Shown here piece by piece: positions 40,334 to 48,205 of a stretch of DNA of 64,000 nt. The notes beneath the pieces were generated by a model. The model was given only the letters and a program-made list of their open reading frames with translations. It was not told where the DNA came from and made no database searches. Numbering within the stretch: position 1 is the stretch's first letter; each line of letters starts with the position of its first letter. Made by a program: the position numbers and the translations under genes. The DNA comes from Planctomycetota bacterium (GTDB lineage: Bacteria > Planctomycetota > Phycisphaerae > UBA1845 > UTPLA1). The stretch spans positions 1 to 64,000 of the forward strand of contig JAATGM010000004.1 of assembly GCA_015654675.1 (NCBI GenBank). The letters run 5' to 3'.

Positions 40334-41989
40334 CTAGGGCCGATGCCACTCATCGCATGCCGCGCACCGCGGCCATGCTGCACCATCTTTGAATTCACGT
40401 GACGCTTCGGCAGCGCGGTGCGCGCTCCGCAGCCGACCCATGACCCCCGCCTCCCAGATCTCCGCAAGCGATTGCGCTCCAACACGCCCAATCACCTGGC
40501 TCCCCGAAAAATCCTGATCGCACGAAGCCACGCTCCCATCCGCCAAAACCATCGTCCGCCGCGAAATCTGACGACACGCCACGCGCCCCGGCGGCGCAAC
40601 CCGCGTCACGCGCCGATCCTCCATCTGCCCTGCAAACCCGCTCGCCCCGCGAATGCTCGCCACCCCCAGCCGCCGCAACCATGCGTCGTAAAACTCCTCC
40701 ATGTCATCCACGTTGCCCGTGCTCTTGATGAACTCCGGCACAATGATCGGCCGCACCGCCCGCCGATCCACCCGCCACCGCGCCCACCGCTCCATCCGCC
40801 CGCACACGGCGTCAAACCCATCCACGCCATGCACCCGCCGATACGTCTCCGGCGTCGCCGCGTCCAGCCCGACAATCACGGCGTCTGCCGGTGCCGCAAA
40901 CAGCACCTCATCCACTCGCTCGTCACCCGCCAGCCCGGTCGTCTGCACACCGATCGCCAACGCCGATGACGCCCGCAGCATCGCGAGGATCTCGCCAAAC
41001 CGCGGATGCAAACACGGCTCTCCGAATCCCCCCAGCACAACCCGCACGTCGTCCCACCCCTCAATCCCCTCGATCACCCGTCGAACATGCTCATTCGAAA
41101 TCGGACCGCGCCGACCAACCATCCCCCCGCGTGGCCGCAAAACCGTCCGCCCAGCCAGCGGATCGTCGGTTGTCAGCTCGATCTCAATTTCTTCCGGCGC
41201 GCTAGCAACAACGCCCCCGTCATCGCGAACCATCTCCGCGGCAATCCGTTCCGCACCCCACGAATCGGCCCCAAGCTCGATCAGCCGCGCCACGCGCTCA
41301 AAGCTCCGCCGCGTATCCGCAATCAACCGCCCCCGCGCCTCGATAATCACCGACGCCGGACGATAACAAGCGCCTTTCCCCGTCAGATCCGGCTGCGGCT
41401 GATCCGGCTGATAGACAAGCAACGCACCCGCCGGCTGCAGCGCACCATCCAACTCTTCCAGAATCGATCGCGAGAAAATCGCCGGCGCCAACCCCGGCGG
41501 CGCCTGACAAAAAGTGATCCGCGCCGCCTCCGCGTTTTCCTCATGATGCGCAACCATCGCATCGACCAGCCCAACATCAATCAAAACAGCCGCCGCCGAC
41601 ACAAACACCACCGAGTCCGCCTCGGCGTGTTTCGCTGCCTCCGCGCAAGCCCCCGCGCTCATCTCCTCGTCAAACCAGCACAGCCCGCCGATCCCCCCGC
41701 GCCAGCCATCCGGCCCCCACGCCCGCCCGCTCCTCGCCAATTCACGATACGGCGCAACCAGTCTCTCGCTCACTTCGACCCGCGCCGGCGTCCCCGCCAA
41801 CAGCCCGCGCGTCGCATCGCATTCCTCAGCCGACGCCAATACCACGATCCCCGCCAACCGCTCCGCCCGCGCAAGTCGCTCAACCGTCCGCCGCAACACG
41901 GCCTGCCCGGCAATCGCATTCGCCAGCCGCGAGCGCGTCCCCAGCCCGCTAGTCCGCAAATCGACCTGCATCACCGCGATGCACTTCAT
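40334..41989 (-). CDS. SpsF-like nucleotidyltransferase fused to a cysteine-less radical-SAM-like domain and SPASM domain
   Basis: The 551-residue protein has three parts. Residues 1-230 resemble SpsF/KdsB cytidylyltransferases (IAVMQVDLRTSGLGTRSRLA). Residues 270-470 look like a radical SAM barrel (VRVVLGGFGEPCLHPRFGEI), but the expected CxxxCxxC after IELTT reads TDDPLAGRTVLRP, so the 4Fe-4S cysteines are gone. Residues 475-551 form a SPASM-like end (VACRQISRRT; SVASCDQDF; CAACDEW) with cysteines kept. This resembles what I recall as 'spiro-SPASM' proteins. It is coupled (4-base overlap) to the Maf gene; a role in surface sugar synthesis is inferred. Confidence 0.75.
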   Translation of the reverse strand: MKCIAVMQVDLRTSGLGTRSRLANAIAGQAVLRRTVERLARAERLAGIVVLASAEECDATRGLLAGTPARVEVSERLVAPYRELARSGRAWGPDGWRGGIGGLCWFDEEMSAGACAEAAKHAEADSVVFVSAAAVLIDVGLVDAMVAHHEENAEAARITFCQAPPGLAPAIFSRSILEELDGALQPAGALLVYQPDQPQPDLTGKGACYRPASVIIEARGRLIADTRRSFERVARLIELGADSWGAERIAAEMVRDDGGVVASAPEEIEIELTTDDPLAGRTVLRPRGGMVGRRGPISNEHVRRVIEGIEGWDDVRVVLGGFGEPCLHPRFGEILAMLRASSALAIGVQTTGLAGDERVDEVLFAAPADAVIVGLDAATPETYRRVHGVDGFDAVCGRMERWARWRVDRRAVRPIIVPEFIKSTGNVDDMEEFYDAWLRRLGVASIRGASGFAGQMEDRRVTRVAPPGRVACRQISRRTMVLADGSVASCDQDFSGSQVIGRVGAQSLAEIWEAGVMGRLRSAHRAAEASREFKDGAAWPRCAACDEWHRP

Positions 41990-43914
41990 GTCGTCGGCCC
42001 CGCGCCCGCCAGTTCCTCGTCAAATCGCCGCAGCGTCCGTTCAAACATTTGCTCCACCGCTCCGCAGCCCTCAATCAGTGCATCCACAAACCGCCGATCC
42101 CGCGCCAACTGCCGCACCGACTTCTCGCGTCCCTCCAGCCCCTCCGCCACAAGCCGCCGATCCGCCCAGAACTTCTGCAATTCCGCAAGCTGCGTCACCT
42201 CGCAAACCAGCGCGAACACCTCGTCATGCGAACGCACCTCGGTCCGCAACTCATCCACGCGAACGATCAACTGGTTAAACGCCGGCGCGTCACTCACCAG
42301 CCCCTCCAGCCGCTGCAGCACATCGCGCGTCTCCTCGCACAACTTCCGAAACCCACCCACCTCGTCGCGTCGCCGCGCCAGCGCCGCCCGCCCGGCCCGC
42401 ACCCGCTCCCCGTCATATCTCCATGCTGTCGTCGCTTCCGGCAATGGTCGCTCGCAATACCGCTCAATCACCTCCGCCAGCGCCATCGCCGTCGTCCCCG
42501 CCTTCCGAACTCCCCCCTCGGTGGCATCGATCACTCGCGCCCGCGACGCCGCAAAATCCCGCTCAAACTGCTCCAGATAAGTAAACATCTGCTCATCCGT
42601 ATAGATCGCACGCCCCGCAACGTCCGTCGTCCGCCGCAGGATCGGCCGATGCCGAACAATTCGCTCCCACTCCTTCTGCTCCAGCGAACAAAACCGCCCC
42701 AGCTCCGGCCGCCACGCATCGTGAATCGTCACGCCCGGCGTGTAGTAAACCGATCCGCTGAATCCCAGGTCCTGTCCGACAAACACAATCGGATCGCACC
42801 CCAAATGCTCGGCCAGATAAAACGACAGATGCGCGACCGTGCTCCCCGCCGCCAAACCGCTCCGCCCGGCCAGCTCCGCGCCAACACACCGCTGCGCAAA
42901 CTCGTTATTCAGGAAAATCACCCGCCGCGCTGCCGGCCCCGTCCCCCCGCGAAACGTATCGACCACCGCAAACGCCGCCTTCGGCTCCGCCACCATCACC
43001 GCGTCGCCGAAATCCTCAACCCCCTCGAAAAACCGCCGCGACAAATCACTGAAATCCAGCGTCGTCACAAAGTCCGGCCGAATCCCGCGCGCCAGCAGCG
43101 GCTTCAACGTCGTCTGCACCGCGATAATGACGGCCCGTCCCGCCGCGCGCTTCAAAAGGTCAATGTTCTTCGCCAAAGACGGCCCCGCCGACACCACAAT
43201 CGCCGCATGCCCCGCAAATTTCCCCTGCAACACATCCAACGTCGGCGTCGCCAGATACGCCGGCAGGTTCCCCGCAATGTTCTCGCACGTCACCCGGCTG
43301 TTCGCGATCAGCGTCACCAGTGACATCTTCGAAAACGCCGCAAAGTCGAGAATGTTCTGCCGACAAGCCGCGTGAAACGCCGCATCCACCGTCCGCCCCG
43401 CCGGCGGCACAACCAGCCGCGTCCCCAGCATCAGCAGCGCCGAGAGCGGCGTCAGCTTCTCATGAATCTCCTGCTTATCCGTCGTCGTGATGAAGATCAG
43501 CCGGCCGCCCGCGATCGCTTCCGAAAAATCCGCGTGCTCCAGCGCCGCCCGCAACGTCGCCAGGTTCGGCTCGCTGACGATCACAATCCCCGCCGACCCC
43601 ATCTCCTCCAATAGCGGCCGAACGTGATACCCCAACCCCATCCCGCACAACACCGCGCACATCGACTCGCGCTCGTCCCCCGACGCGCACAATCGCTCGG
43701 CCTCGCCCGCCGGATCATGCCGGCTATGCAGATAAAGCCGCTTCCCATCCTCCCCGATCCGGCAAGCCGTCACCGACCCGCGCGGCGTCGCCTCAACCAC
43801 CAGACTCGCATCCGCACCCAGTCTGTCAATTGCATCGGCCAGCCGCGCATCGCGCCGATACAGAGCTGCCATGTTGGAAGTGAATCGCGCGTCGATCTCC
43901 GCCGTCGCCGACAT
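41986..43914 (-). CDS. Maf/DUF115 family protein (motility-associated glycosyltransferase-like)
   Basis: The 642-residue protein has the DUF115 (6-hydroxymethylpterin pyrophosphokinase MptE-like) core: AAIVVSAGPSLAKNIDLLK, IAVQTTLKPLLARGIRPDFV and DPIVFVGQDLGFSGSVYY. An N-terminal Maf domain (CAVLCGMGLGYHVRPLLEE) precedes it and a helical C-terminus follows. Maf proteins attach nonulosonic acids to flagellins in other bacteria. ATG 43914 starts the conserved region; the frame is open to 43959. It is paired with a SpsF-like gene, consistent with sugar activation and transfer, but no flagellar gene is in view. Confidence 0.88.
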   Translation of the reverse strand: MSATAEIDARFTSNMAALYRRDARLADAIDRLGADASLVVEATPRGSVTACRIGEDGKRLYLHSRHDPAGEAERLCASGDERESMCAVLCGMGLGYHVRPLLEEMGSAGIVIVSEPNLATLRAALEHADFSEAIAGGRLIFITTTDKQEIHEKLTPLSALLMLGTRLVVPPAGRTVDAAFHAACRQNILDFAAFSKMSLVTLIANSRVTCENIAGNLPAYLATPTLDVLQGKFAGHAAIVVSAGPSLAKNIDLLKRAAGRAVIIAVQTTLKPLLARGIRPDFVTTLDFSDLSRRFFEGVEDFGDAVMVAEPKAAFAVVDTFRGGTGPAARRVIFLNNEFAQRCVGAELAGRSGLAAGSTVAHLSFYLAEHLGCDPIVFVGQDLGFSGSVYYTPGVTIHDAWRPELGRFCSLEQKEWERIVRHRPILRRTTDVAGRAIYTDEQMFTYLEQFERDFAASRARVIDATEGGVRKAGTTAMALAEVIERYCERPLPEATTAWRYDGERVRAGRAALARRRDEVGGFRKLCEETRDVLQRLEGLVSDAPAFNQLIVRVDELRTEVRSHDEVFALVCEVTQLAELQKFWADRRLVAEGLEGREKSVRQLARDRRFVDALIEGCGAVEQMFERTLRRFDEELAGAGPTT

Positions 43915-43965
43915 CGCCGCGATTCTATCCGCGTCGCACCCCGCCACCGTCCCCGACACACGCGT

Positions 43966-44010
43966 AAAAAAAGAGCAGGCCCGGCCGTGTCCTCCTACGG
44001 CCGGACCTGC
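43966..44010 (-). terminator. intrinsic terminator of the 50-residue peptide gene
   Basis: The arms GCAGG-x-CCGGCCGT (43975-43988) and ACGGCCGG-x-CCTGC (43997-44010) form a 14-position stem with one mismatch and an 8-base loop. On the minus strand it is followed by TC and seven T residues (43972-43966). It is the clearest intrinsic terminator in the window and separates the peptide gene from the Maf gene. Confidence 0.88.
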
Positions 44011-44054
44011 GCGTTTTGTGAAGCCGGTCTACCGTGACCGGCCGGATATCGTCC

Positions 44055-44207
44055 TTAGAAGGGCAGATTTCCGAGCACGCCCAGAATGGCGCTGAAGATC
44101 TGACCCATGACGTCGCTCAACGCGGTGCCGATGACAGGCAACTGCCCGACAACGCCCTGAATCGAGTCAAAGAACGACGACAGCAAACCAGCAATTCCAC
44201 CTTCCAT
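44055..44207 (-). CDS. 50-residue hydrophobic/amphipathic peptide
   Basis: ATG at 44207 is followed by 49 further codons and TAA. The peptide begins MEGGIAGLLSSFFDSIQGVV, continues GQLPVIGTALSDVMGQIF and ends SAILGVLGNLPF. It has no basic residue, is rich in Gly/Leu/Ile/Val/Ser, and could form amphipathic helices. AAGGAGAG stands close before the ATG. It has its own promoter-like region and terminator, so it is probably expressed. I recognise no family; a membrane-active, self-assembling or signalling peptide are possible. Confidence 0.65.
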   Translation of the reverse strand: MEGGIAGLLSSFFDSIQGVVGQLPVIGTALSDVMGQIFSAILGVLGNLPF

Positions 44208-44230
44208 AATTCGACTCTCCTTGGCGAGGT

Positions 44231-44236
44231 AGTATA
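44231..44236 (-). promoter_or_regulatory. -10 box (TATACT) of the 50-residue peptide gene
   Basis: Read on the minus strand it is TATACT, 23 bases before the ATG. No consensus -35 is found; an inverted repeat occupies the expected region. Confidence 0.5.
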
Positions 44237-44241
44237 CATCG

Positions 44242-44260
44242 GTGCTTGTCCCCCAAGCAC
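44242..44260 (-). promoter_or_regulatory. 19-bp inverted repeat upstream of the peptide -10 box
   Basis: GTGCTTG, 5-base loop, CAAGCAC: perfect 7-bp arms placed in the spacer/-35 region. It is a good candidate operator for a regulator of the peptide gene. Confidence 0.55.
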
Positions 44261-44480
44261 TCTTACGCCCTACGTACTAGCAAAGCCCGTGCCAAGGGCG
44301 ACCTGCGAAATGGACCAGAAAAACAGCATTTCCATTCCGGGAATGAGCATTTGAGGTGGTTCTCGATAACAACTGGGCACTTTTACTACCAATTACCCAA
44401 TATTGTCGTGAACCCAATTCTACCCACCTTACCTTATCGGGCTTAGGGGCCAACCGCCGCCCGGCCCAATACGACTGCTT

Positions 44481-44491
44481 TCGTAGTACGA
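44481..44491 (+). promoter_or_regulatory. possible BlaI operator
   Basis: TCGTAGTACGA is a perfect palindrome (5-bp arms around G), 7 bases before the blaI-like ATG. BlaI repressors bind TAC/GTA-type dyads, so autoregulation is plausible. Confidence 0.45.
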
Positions 44492-44498
44492 TTCGACC

Positions 44499-44909
44499 AT
44501 GTCTGACGCACCCCCGCTCCCCACCGATGCCGAGCTTGAGATCCTCGCCGTCCTTTGGGACGACGGTTGGTCCACCGTTCGCAACGTCTGGACCCGGCTC
44601 TCCACGCATCGCGCCATGGTTTACACCACAGTCCTCAAGTTCATGCAAATCATGCACGCTAAAGGCCTAGTTCAGCGCGACGAATCGCGCCGCACACATC
44701 TCTACAACGCCGTCGATCCCAAAGATCTCACCCAGCGAAAGCTGATCACCGATCTCGTCGCACGCGCCTTCAACAACTCCCCCATCGATCTCGTCCGTCA
44801 GACGCTCGCCATCGCCGAGCTTTCCGCCGCCGATCGCCAAACGCTCCGCGCGCTCATCGAGCAGCTAGCGAATCCGCCCCCGCCTTCCCCAGCCGCTCCG
44901 GCTCGCTGA
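44499..44909 (+). CDS. BlaI/MecI-type winged-helix repressor
   Basis: The 136-residue protein has the BlaI layout: LPTDAELEILAVLWDDGWST, the recognition region VYTTVLKFMQIMHAKGLVQRD, and a C-terminal dimerisation helix. In beta-lactam systems it is cleaved through a BlaR1 peptidase, but no blaR gene is adjacent here. Its last 56 bases overlap the 3' end of the convergent exporter gene, so the two transcripts are antisense there. It may regulate the exporter; that is inference. Confidence 0.9.
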   Translation: MSDAPPLPTDAELEILAVLWDDGWSTVRNVWTRLSTHRAMVYTTVLKFMQIMHAKGLVQRDESRRTHLYNAVDPKDLTQRKLITDLVARAFNNSPIDLVRQTLAIAELSAADRQTLRALIEQLANPPPPSPAAPAR

Positions 44910-45969
44910 GAAACCAAACATCCATCTGCAACTCCAGAGGCACGTCGTCGGCATCCTCCAACGCCACGACCACTTCCTGAATCCGCGTGTCAACTTTTTC
45001 CGTCGGCCGGGCGGTGCGAAAATTCTTTCGCCCCAGCGTCGGCTCGACATGCACCACGCGCCCGGCAAATCGACGATCTCCAAACGCCGACGCCTGGGCG
45101 AAAACCATCTGCCCCGGCCACACGCGTTCAATGTCCGTCTCATCCACATCCACCCGAACGTGCAGCACGCGCCGATCGCCCACCGAGAGAATCGGCGTCG
45201 GCGTGTCCGTGAACACCGCCTCGCCCGGCTCGCGATGCCGGTAGATCACCATCCCGTCAATCGGCGATCGAATGAACGTCTTCTCCAGCACCGCCTTGGC
45301 CGATGCCAGCTGCGCCCGCGCCTCGCTCACCGCCGCCTCCCCGCGCCGCACGTCCTCCACCCGCGCTCCCGCTCTCGCCATCTCAAGCCGCTTACGCGCC
45401 GCCTGCTCCTGCGCCAGTGCCTGGTCGCGCGACGACCGCGCCTGTGCCAGTTCTCGTTCCGATACCGCCTCCTTCTTCACCATCCGCTCCACGCGCGTCG
45501 CCTCAAACTCCGCGAACTTTCGCCGTGCCTCGGCCTCGTCCACATTCGCCTGCAAGACCGCGATATCCTCCGGCCGCTCTCCGTTCTTCACGCGCGCCAG
45601 CTCCGCTTCCGCGCGTGCCAGCGACGCCTCCGCCAGATCCGCCTGCGCCTGCTGCAGCGAATGGTCCAGCTCCGCAACCAGTTGCCCGCGCTGCACGCGC
45701 TCGCCCGCCTGCACCGAAATTGACTTCAACGTCCCCGACAGCTCGCTCACGATCTGAACCGATCGCGATCGCGGCTCCGTCACGCCCGGCGCGCTGAACA
45801 CCACGCCCTGCCCACCGGCCAGCAACGATGTCTTCATCGACGCCTGCTCCAGCGCCCCGCCGAAAGCAGCACCCGGCGGCGGCTCGGCCCGCCACACGCA
45901 AACCCCGCCGCCCGTCACAGCCGTCAGCCCCGTCACGATCCATATCCAGCGCTTCTTGATTTTCGTCAT
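44854..45969 (-). CDS. HlyD-family adaptor of an ABC exporter (DevB-like)
   Basis: The 371-residue protein has one N-terminal helix (WIWIVTGLTAVTGGGVCVW), a lipoyl half (SGTLKSISVQAGERVQRGQLV), a long coiled-coil hairpin (residues 120-235, Ala/Glu/Arg-rich) and the second half with KTFIRSPIDGMVIYRHREPGE. It would link the ABC permease to an outer-membrane channel. Its start overlaps the ATPase stop (ATGA). Its 3' end overlaps the convergent blaI-like gene by 56 bases. Confidence 0.92.
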   Translation of the reverse strand: MTKIKKRWIWIVTGLTAVTGGGVCVWRAEPPPGAAFGGALEQASMKTSLLAGGQGVVFSAPGVTEPRSRSVQIVSELSGTLKSISVQAGERVQRGQLVAELDHSLQQAQADLAEASLARAEAELARVKNGERPEDIAVLQANVDEAEARRKFAEFEATRVERMVKKEAVSERELAQARSSRDQALAQEQAARKRLEMARAGARVEDVRRGEAAVSEARAQLASAKAVLEKTFIRSPIDGMVIYRHREPGEAVFTDTPTPILSVGDRRVLHVRVDVDETDIERVWPGQMVFAQASAFGDRRFAGRVVHVEPTLGRKNFRTARPTEKVDTRIQEVVVALEDADDVPLELQMDVWFLSEPERLGKAGADSLAAR

Positions 45970-46679
45970 AGTCCACCTTCGCGCGATACGATCCGGCCGT
46001 CCTCGATTCGAACCACGTCGTCCGCCATCGGCTTCAACCGGACATCATGTGTCACCACCACCACCGCGCGACCATCCTGGTCTGCCAGCGAGCGCAGCAA
46101 TTCCATCACCGTCTTCGCACTGCGACTGTCGAGACTCGCCGTCGGCTCATCCGCCAGCACCAGCGATCCCGGCGAAGCCAGCGCCCGCGCGATCGCCACC
46201 CGCTGCTGTTGCCCGCCGCTCAACTCCGACGGCAGGTGATCCGCCCGGTCCGCCAGCCCCACCCGCTCCAGCAGCCCCATCGCCCCGCTGGCCGCCGCGT
46301 GCTGCGTTTGCCCCTGCAAATCCAGCACCACCTGAACGTTCTCTTGCGCCGTCAACGCGGTCAGCAGGTTCGAATTCTGAAAAATGAACCCCACCTCGCG
46401 CCGCCGAACCGCGGTCCAGTCCGACTCCGAGCAGTTGCTCAAGTCGCGCCCCCCAACTTCTACCCGCCCGCGCGTCGGCCGCCGCAACAGCCCAAGAATC
46501 GTCAGCAACGTCGTCTTCCCCGAACCCGATGGCCCCATCAGCAGCGTTAACTTTCCCGCCTGAATCTCAAGATCAACCTCGTCGAGCACGACCAGATTGT
46601 TCGGCGCTCGGCCATACTCATGCGAAACGCCGCAAAGCCGTGCCGCAATTCCGAGACTCGGTGTCGTGTCGATAAACAT
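45966..46679 (-). CDS. ABC transporter ATPase (DevA/LolD-like)
   Basis: The 237-residue protein has Walker A MGPSGSGKTTLL, signature LSGGQQQRVAIARAL and Walker B LVLADEPTASLDS, then the H-loop VVVVTHDVRL. It energises the adjacent FtsX-like permease. ATG 46679 is chosen because GGAGG lies 5 bases upstream; an in-frame codon at 46691 overlaps the permease. It is the middle gene of a permease-ATPase-adaptor operon. Confidence 0.95.
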   Translation of the reverse strand: MFIDTTPSLGIAARLCGVSHEYGRAPNNLVVLDEVDLEIQAGKLTLLMGPSGSGKTTLLTILGLLRRPTRGRVEVGGRDLSNCSESDWTAVRRREVGFIFQNSNLLTALTAQENVQVVLDLQGQTQHAAASGAMGLLERVGLADRADHLPSELSGGQQQRVAIARALASPGSLVLADEPTASLDSRSAKTVMELLRSLADQDGRAVVVVTHDVRLKPMADDVVRIEDGRIVSREGGL

Positions 46680-46680
46680 C

Positions 46681-47817
46681 TCAACCTCCAAACACCATCG
46701 CCGGCGAGAGCCGAAACACCTTCGCCGCGCTCGTCACGCTCGCAGCCGCGCACGTCACCAGCGTGATCACCAGCACGGCCCCGTGCAGCCACGGCTCAAA
46801 CACCACCTGCATGTTCCAATCCGGCAGCTTCTGTCCCACCGCATACGCCAGCGCCGTCCCCACCCCAAACCCGATCGACCCCACCATTAACGCCTGTCGA
46901 AGCACGATCATCGCCACCCGCGAGTTATCCATCCCTAGCGCCTTCAGCGTTCCATACTCGCGCAATCGATCCAGGGTCGACGTGTAAATCGTCTGGCACA
47001 CAATCACCGACCCCACCGCCAGCCCCAGCACGGCGGCAAACACAATCCCCATCCCCACCCCAGTTCCAAACAGCCAGTAGTCCCGGCTCTGACTCGAAAG
47101 CTGCGCCGTCGTCAGCACATCCATGTCCGGCAGCCGCGCCGCCAGCCGCCGCTGCAATTCCACCACGGGCACACCCGCCGCCGCCTTTACGACAATGAAT
47201 TTCGTCTGCTCATCCCCCACCGCCGTGCAGCGCTCCGCCTGCCGCTGCGACGTAAACACATACGGAATCGTCGTGATGCTCCCCACTCCGCGCGTGAAGC
47301 CCGCGATCCGCACCTTGCTGTTCATGATCTCGGCCTGATCCCCCACACGCAGCGGCCGCCCCGCGCTCCCGAATCTTCGCCGCTCGCGCTCGTCGATCAT
47401 CACGCCATCGCGACTCTCGAGAAATTCACGCCCGCCTTCCACCGTATCCCACGGAAGATTCAACCGGCTCTTCGGCGCGATCCCCACAATCTGCGCCACC
47501 TCTGGCCGCCCATCCGGCAATCGCCACTGCGAAAAATGAACCAGCAGCGGCTCCGCCCACGCCACTCCCGGCGTCGCCTGCGCCTGATACAACCGCCGCC
47601 GGCTGATCGGCTCCGCCAGGTCAAACGCCCGCGTCCCGCTCGCGGTGATCCAAAGATCGCCCCCCGCGTTATCAATCACGCAACTCGCGTTGCCCGCGCT
47701 CGCCAGATACAAGCCCCCGAGACTCGTGACGAGCATCACCGAGAAGGCCACGCCGACGAACGAAGTCGCCAGCCGGACCTTGTCGTGCAACAGATTTTTC
47801 GTCGCGATCGATACCAT
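46681..47817 (-). CDS. FtsX-like ABC permease (DevC-like)
   Basis: The 378-residue protein has four transmembrane helices (TSFVGVAFSVMLVTSLGGLY near 20, then three in the last 140 residues, including YTSTLDRLREYGTLKALGMD). A periplasmic domain begins with GGDLWITASGTRAFDLAEP, typical of the DevC branch of MacB-like permeases. Such tripartite systems export lipids or glycolipids, or remove compounds from the periplasm. ATG 47817 begins the first helix; the frame is open to 47904. Confidence 0.92.
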   Translation of the reverse strand: MVSIATKNLLHDKVRLATSFVGVAFSVMLVTSLGGLYLASAGNASCVIDNAGGDLWITASGTRAFDLAEPISRRRLYQAQATPGVAWAEPLLVHFSQWRLPDGRPEVAQIVGIAPKSRLNLPWDTVEGGREFLESRDGVMIDERERRRFGSAGRPLRVGDQAEIMNSKVRIAGFTRGVGSITTIPYVFTSQRQAERCTAVGDEQTKFIVVKAAAGVPVVELQRRLAARLPDMDVLTTAQLSSQSRDYWLFGTGVGMGIVFAAVLGLAVGSVIVCQTIYTSTLDRLREYGTLKALGMDNSRVAMIVLRQALMVGSIGFGVGTALAYAVGQKLPDWNMQVVFEPWLHGAVLVITLVTCAAASVTSAAKVFRLSPAMVFGG

Positions 47818-48205
47818 TTCGTTCGTCCACCACTCACAAAGCCAGACCGAGCCGCAAAACGCCGAATCCGGACGCGCCGCGCGAAGTCCGGTGTCGAGCG
47901 TCAATGCGACGCGACGCCAGTTGCAATGGGAGAGGAACGCAACTCAGTCAGGCGGCGACTTAGAGGGCAGTCCGAGTCCACCGTCCCCCAATAAGAGGCA
48001 ATTGAAGGGCCGTTACCCGAAGATTCTGGCCGATTGCTTTAACCCGTTAATTAAAGCGTGCTTATGTAATCGTCAGCAATTACCCTGGACTTGTGTTATG
48101 GGAATTCCCGGGCAATATACCCCAACCCACTCGCCTCGTCGGGCTGTTCCAAGCCCAACCAAGCCTCGCCATTGACGCACCGCCGAGATTCCCGACGATA
48201 GCGAA
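47818..48205. other. divergent promoter region between the ABC exporter and GT2 genes
   Basis: This 388-base region has no gene. It contains a lower-GC stretch at 48030-48120 with GCTTTAA/TTAAAGC arms (48036-48057) and the perfect palindrome GGGAATTCCC (48100-48109). The palindrome lies between a weak TTGTGT (48091-48096) and AATATA (48114-48119), 17 bases apart. This could be an operator-bearing promoter for the GT2 gene. Confidence 0.4.

What the first reader, a model, noticed from the sequence alone, without database searches (positions are those of the whole stretch)
43966..44260. Self-contained transcription unit for a 50-residue hydrophobic peptide
Within 300 bases there is a 19-bp inverted repeat, TATACT, AAGGAGAG, a 50-codon frame without basic residues, and the best intrinsic terminator of the window. 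Short peptides of this kind are usually missed by annotation. Possible roles are membrane-active peptide, type I toxin, scaffold or signal.
Basis: partly seen in the sequence, partly recalled or inferred. Interest (0 to 1): 0.7.

Follow-up and report, generated by a model that had tools for sequence, protein, structure and literature searches.

The report
Unannotated family of two-helix mini-proteins
The window holds a real but unlisted gene for a 50-residue greasy, lysine- and arginine-free peptide, one of at least six very different relatives in three related planctomycete genomes, which probably fold into a two-helix hairpin and act at membranes; what they do is not known.

Summary
On the minus strand lie a 7+5+7-base inverted repeat, TATACT, AAGGAGAG, a 50-codon frame without K, R or H, and the strongest terminator-like hairpin of the window. 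No comparable ORF occurs in 2.56 Mb of composition-matched random DNA. The frame is a gene. The nearest relative (MAG.52) carries a 47-aa homologue, 28% identical, at the same place before the same maf-like gene, with ribosome-binding site and terminator. A profile of these two found a tandem cluster of three more in the window's own genome, closed by its own terminator. A sixth, probable member is in another genus. All lack K and R, share [IL]-P-h-h-G, and two were modelled as helix-turn-helix. Two positions, 11 before and 14 after the proline, carry the same residue in each peptide: Cys/Cys four times, Phe/Phe here, Leu/Leu once. This suggests cross-helix contact, sometimes a disulfide. No Pfam, NCBIfam, PHROGs or PADLOC family matches. 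Best guess (0.4): leaderless membrane-active hairpin peptides, organised like staphylococcal beta-type modulins but not shown to be related. A type I toxin and a maf attenuator are poorly supported. Role and expression are untested.

The parts
44242..44260 (-). inverted repeat GTGCTTG-GGGGA-CAAGCAC; possible operator or 5' hairpin
   Evidence: unique in the genome; not conserved in the relative, so weak
44231..44236 (-). TATACT, -10-like hexamer
   Evidence: no acceptable -35
44215..44222 (-). Shine-Dalgarno AAGGAGAG, 7 bases before ATG
   Evidence: relative has AAAAGGAGAAGTCGA-ATG at the same place
44055..44207 (-). ORF of 50 aa, MEGGIAGLLSSFFDSIQGVVGQLPVIGTALSDVMGQIFSAILGVLGNLPF
   Evidence: two predicted helices 4-20 and 24-47
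44023..44042 (-). small hairpin GCCGGTC-ACGGTA-GACCGGC between stop codon and terminator
   Evidence: not seen in the relative
43966..44010 (-). intrinsic terminator: 14-pair stem, then TCTTTTTTT
   Evidence: counterpart in the relative
43922..43927 (-). TAGAAT, probable -10 of the downstream maf-like gene (TACAAT in the relative)
   Evidence: read by eye
41986..43914 (-). neighbouring maf/MptE-like gene downstream of the terminator
   Evidence: Pfam MptE-like 8e-37, Maf_flag10_N 5e-6; found in 60 of the 61 genomes searched, the window's own included

Best explanation
The unit is a real, independently transcribed and terminated gene for a short leaderless peptide, one member of a fast-diverging family. 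Each peptide is two hydrophobic helices joined at an [IL]-P-h-h-G turn and most likely folds as an antiparallel hairpin held by one cross-helix contact: Cys-Cys, perhaps a disulfide, in four members, Phe-Phe here, Leu-Leu in one. With no basic residues, no signal peptide and no toxin or enzyme domain, the peptides most likely act at membranes or other interfaces, inserting or assembling there alone or as mixtures, as small membrane-active (bacteriocin- or modulin-like) peptides would. Shown: the gene, its relatives, the motif and the paired positions. Predicted: the two helices. Inferred: hairpin packing, disulfide, membrane action, release.
For: Syntenic homologue with ribosome-binding site and terminator. 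A two-sequence profile found two further ORFs of the same kind within 450 bp of each other in 4.9 Mb; the region holds three tandem K/R-free ORFs with ribosome-binding sites and a closing terminator. Sixth member in G008 with ribosome-binding site and promoter-like site. Chance ORFs of this kind: 0 in 2.56 Mb. The Cys/Cys, Phe/Phe, Leu/Leu pair is the only such column pair; 0 of 2000 within-helix shuffles give one. Predicted helices 4-20/24-47 and 2-18/24-44, pLDDT 73 and 82. GRAVY 1.0-1.3, net charge 0 to -3.
Against: No functional data. Helical moments are modest (about 0.25), and most known membrane-active peptides are cationic whereas these are neutral or acidic. No exporter or immunity gene is shared by the loci: the MacAB-type genes beside this copy are absent beside the relative's. 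The pair test has only six sequences; given the Cys conservation, a permutation gives 24/720 = 0.033. The G008 member scored only E = 0.42 before it was added to the profile.
Confidence: 0.4

Rival explanations
1. A membrane-embedded regulatory microprotein: the hairpin stays in the cell's own membrane and tunes a membrane protein or envelope process.
For: Leaderless, hydrophobic, small; no exporter linked. A second, unrelated K-poor peptide pair is conserved in 14 of 17 family genomes, often before accD, so such microproteins are normal in this lineage.
Against: Very fast divergence, no common partner gene, and a three-paralogue operon are unusual for a subunit bound to one partner.
Confidence: 0.27
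2. A self-assembling structural or surface peptide (coat, fibre, biofilm or compartment material).
For: Very hydrophobic, strong ribosome-binding sites, several paralogues, Cys pair.
Against: No assembly evidence; patchy distribution.
Confidence: 0.13
3. A type I toxin whose translation is held down by an antisense RNA.
For: Size, hydrophobicity, strong terminator, paralogues. Review PMC8309996 gives under 60 aa, hydrophobic, one helical transmembrane domain as typical.
Against: No promoter-like site found on either strand of 43000-45200 (this scan also misses the peptide's own promoter, so it is weak evidence); no Rfam match; no basic residues, which most but not all known type I toxins have at the C-terminus; the inferred leader is only about 16 bases; three tandem frames in one apparent unit leave little room for separate antitoxins.
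Confidence: 0.1
4. A leader peptide and attenuator controlling the maf-like gene.
For: A short frame and a terminator lie directly before maf in two species.
Against: Four of six members are not before maf; the C4 cluster ends at a convergent gene. Maf has its own -10 after the terminator in both species. The residues and predicted fold of the peptide are conserved rather than a run of regulatory codons.
Confidence: 0.05
5. A chance open frame.
For: Low identity between homologues; no expression data.
Against: Synteny, paralogues, motif, terminators, and a zero background rate.
Confidence: 0.03

Closest known systems
Staphylococcal beta-type phenol-soluble modulins / SLUSH peptides (Pfam Staph_haemo)
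   Same: Several short, leaderless helical peptide genes side by side; PMC10650139 describes three linked slush genes. Similar length (own knowledge).
   Different: No Pfam match at E up to 10; here no basic residues, a central [IL]PhhG turn and a Cys pair; Planctomycetota. Not shown to be homologous.
Leaderless multi-peptide bacteriocins (own knowledge: aureocin A70, enterocin L50/7 type)
   Same: Operon of several leaderless helical peptides of 30-55 aa.
   Different: Those are strongly cationic and sit with transporter or immunity genes; these are neutral to acidic and have no such genes in common.
Membrane-associated type I toxins (Hok, Ldr/Fst, TisB, ZorO)
   Same: Small hydrophobic helical peptides, sometimes duplicated (PMC8309996, PMC3919570).
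   Different: Two predicted helices rather than one transmembrane helix; no basic residues; no antisense RNA detected.

Membership tests
Staphylococcal modulins (Staph_haemo) | matches the family profile in Pfam | tested here: not met
   no match at the E-value limits used, up to 10 (HMMER filters drop most weak matches)
Staphylococcal modulins (Staph_haemo) | several linked leaderless helical peptide genes | tested here: met
   C4 cluster; helices predicted for two members
Type I toxin-antitoxin | antisense or divergent small RNA antitoxin | tested here: inconclusive
   no promoter-like site on either strand, no Rfam match; needs small-RNA data
Type I toxin-antitoxin | under 60 aa, hydrophobic, helical | tested here: met
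   one of the six members has 61 aa
Type I toxin-antitoxin | toxic to the producer when over-expressed | not testable with these tools
   needs a growth assay
Leaderless bacteriocins | cationic peptide | tested here: not met
   net charge 0 to -3 in all six members
Leaderless bacteriocins | dedicated transporter or immunity gene in the cluster | tested here: not met
   neighbours differ at every locus
Leader peptide/attenuator | terminator controls the next gene in the same direction | tested here: not met
   C4 cluster ends at a convergent gene; maf has its own -10 in both species (by eye)

The most novel reading that the evidence does not exclude
A new class of exported, lysine- and arginine-free helical-hairpin peptides, often disulfide-closed, made in sets of diversified paralogues and working as mixtures on membranes or as a surface material in Phycisphaerae, unlike the cationic peptides known for such roles.
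Probability: 0.25. Interest if true: 0.65.

Novelty: new variant of a known kind. Interest (0 to 1): 0.5.

Why it matters
Short genes diverging to 20-30% identity between neighbouring genera are nearly invisible to annotation and single-sequence searches: single-protein scans of 84,980 species genomes and of viral contigs found nothing. Finding them through synteny and a two-sequence profile shows that a lineage known almost only from metagenomes makes at least two separate families of small acidic membrane-type peptides. If they act on other cells, this would be an unusual, non-cationic kind of peptide; if they act in the cell, they are candidates for envelope regulators in a phylum with an unusual envelope.

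Tried and rejected
Single-sequence searches of genome contigs and viral contigs found nothing. Phage records gave only tape-measure fragments at E 0.8 and plasmids nothing. PDB by sequence gave designed armadillo repeats at E 7e-4 to 5, which I take as a helix-composition match and reject. Foldseek: no match below E 7. Rfam: none. A DNA pattern for ribosome-binding site plus ATG plus [IL]PhhG in 17 genomes gave no clear new members at about control-level counts. Profile searches of order, class and phylum samples (114, 397, 392 genomes) gave only weak hits beyond the six members, mostly in long, broken or K/R-bearing frames. A BlaI operator idea was looked at: TAGTACG occurs twice in 64 kb, before blaI and before the peptide, but 21 of 100 shuffles do as well and blaI is not next to the homologue, so it was left as a remark.

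Full report
WHAT IS THERE. The terminator is the strongest terminator-like site listed for the whole 64 kb and folds far better than shuffles. The promoter side is the weak part: no -35 fits TATACT, and short inverted repeats are common.

IS IT MORE THAN CHANCE. Short frames (40-65 aa) with a ribosome-binding site and no K or R occur once in the window (this one), never in 2.56 Mb of random DNA with the window's dinucleotide make-up, and never in 173 kb of related natural DNA.

RELATIVES. The window belongs to a 4.9 Mb genome. Its closest relatives by the neighbouring maf-like protein are Phycisphaerae (Planctomycetota) metagenome genomes. The nearest, G011 (contig of 149,416 bases, matching MAG.52, JAKLKO010000009.1), has the maf-like gene at 67-68% identity. 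At about the same distance before it (312 against 293 bases) is a 47-aa frame, MISSIVSEVCSQLTSLFGQLPFVGEGLVSLISQVCEAIISALQGAGL, with AAAAGGAGAAGTCGA before the ATG and a 12-pair terminator with T-tract. The peptides are 28% identical; BLASTP alone sees nothing, so synteny and layout carry the homology here. The gene on the far side differs: blaI in the window, an mgtC-like gene in G011 (by eye).

PARALOGUES. A profile of just these two, run on 101 genomes, gave its best remaining hits in the window's own genome, two places on contig C4 whose starts lie 432 bases apart (E 0.010 and 0.016). The region holds three tandem frames of 48, 52 (GTG start) and 61 codons, each with a ribosome-binding site, none with K or R, closed by a strong terminator. 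The unit lies between a divergent galE-like gene and a convergent thioredoxin/NHL-like gene (names by eye). A five-sequence profile pointed to a sixth member in G008 (44 aa; E 0.42 before inclusion), between a convergent sugar-epimerase gene and a pyrG-like gene (names by eye), with a ribosome-binding site and a promoter-like site. Larger samples added nothing convincing. The family is therefore known here from three of 17 genomes of one taxonomic family.

SHAPE. All six share [IL]-P-h-h-G between two hydrophobic stretches. In the alignment one pair of columns, 11 before (10 in one member) and 14 after the proline, has the same residue within every peptide: Phe/Phe here, Cys/Cys in four, Leu/Leu in G008. 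No other non-invariant column pair does, and none of 2000 within-helix shuffles produced one; a stricter permutation that keeps the Cys conservation gives 24/720. I read this as a cross-helix contact in an antiparallel hairpin, with a possible disulfide in the Cys members. With six sequences it is a lead, not proof.

FUNCTION. The peptides are hydrophobic (GRAVY 1.0-1.3) with net charge 0 to -3 and modest amphipathicity. No library knows them. No gene is shared by all loci. Own transcription unit, strong ribosome-binding sites, a three-paralogue operon and fast divergence fit leaderless membrane-active peptides best, with membrane microproteins next. The type I toxin reading lacks an antitoxin and the basic residues most such toxins have. 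The attenuator reading fails because the C4 cluster has no co-directional gene behind it and maf has its own -10 in both species (TAGAAT and TACAAT just before the ATG, by eye).

NOVELTY. The parts are ordinary, but the family is not in the libraries searched, and the combination of no basic residues, central turn and swapped contact pair is unusual. Expression, location and activity are all untested; the mechanism is inference.

Noticed in passing
L194-L203, e.g. L199:5015-5336, L198:4934-5251: A second, unrelated small acidic hydrophobic peptide family: mostly tandem pairs of 36-39 aa (TWDFVISALIGIIDLNPLLDLIFTPLAWALTFW type) in 14 of 17 family genomes, with many synonymous differences between near-identical copies (selection on the protein), often just before an accD-like gene. 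Absent from exactly G000 (the window), its nearest relative G011, and G003; G008 has both families.
   Followed up: partly
44273-44286 (-) and 44477-44490 (+): A 14-base near-repeat GCTTTssTAGTACG lies before the peptide and before blaI, the latter inside a perfect dyad TCGTA-G-TACGA; possibly BlaI operators, but not significant by count.
   Followed up: partly
L003:1492-1650 (-): Another K/R-free 53-aa frame in G012, MTPMENEIQLAVIEIVFQFVGIFLNVGLTVFQTLLTDVFGHIFSAIFGAIPSA, of a third type; not pursued.
   Followed up: no
44857-47904 (-): HlyD-type membrane-fusion protein, ABC ATPase and FtsX-like permease (by eye; MacAB-type exporter genes) upstream of the peptide and on the same strand; not beside the homologue in G011.
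   Followed up: partly
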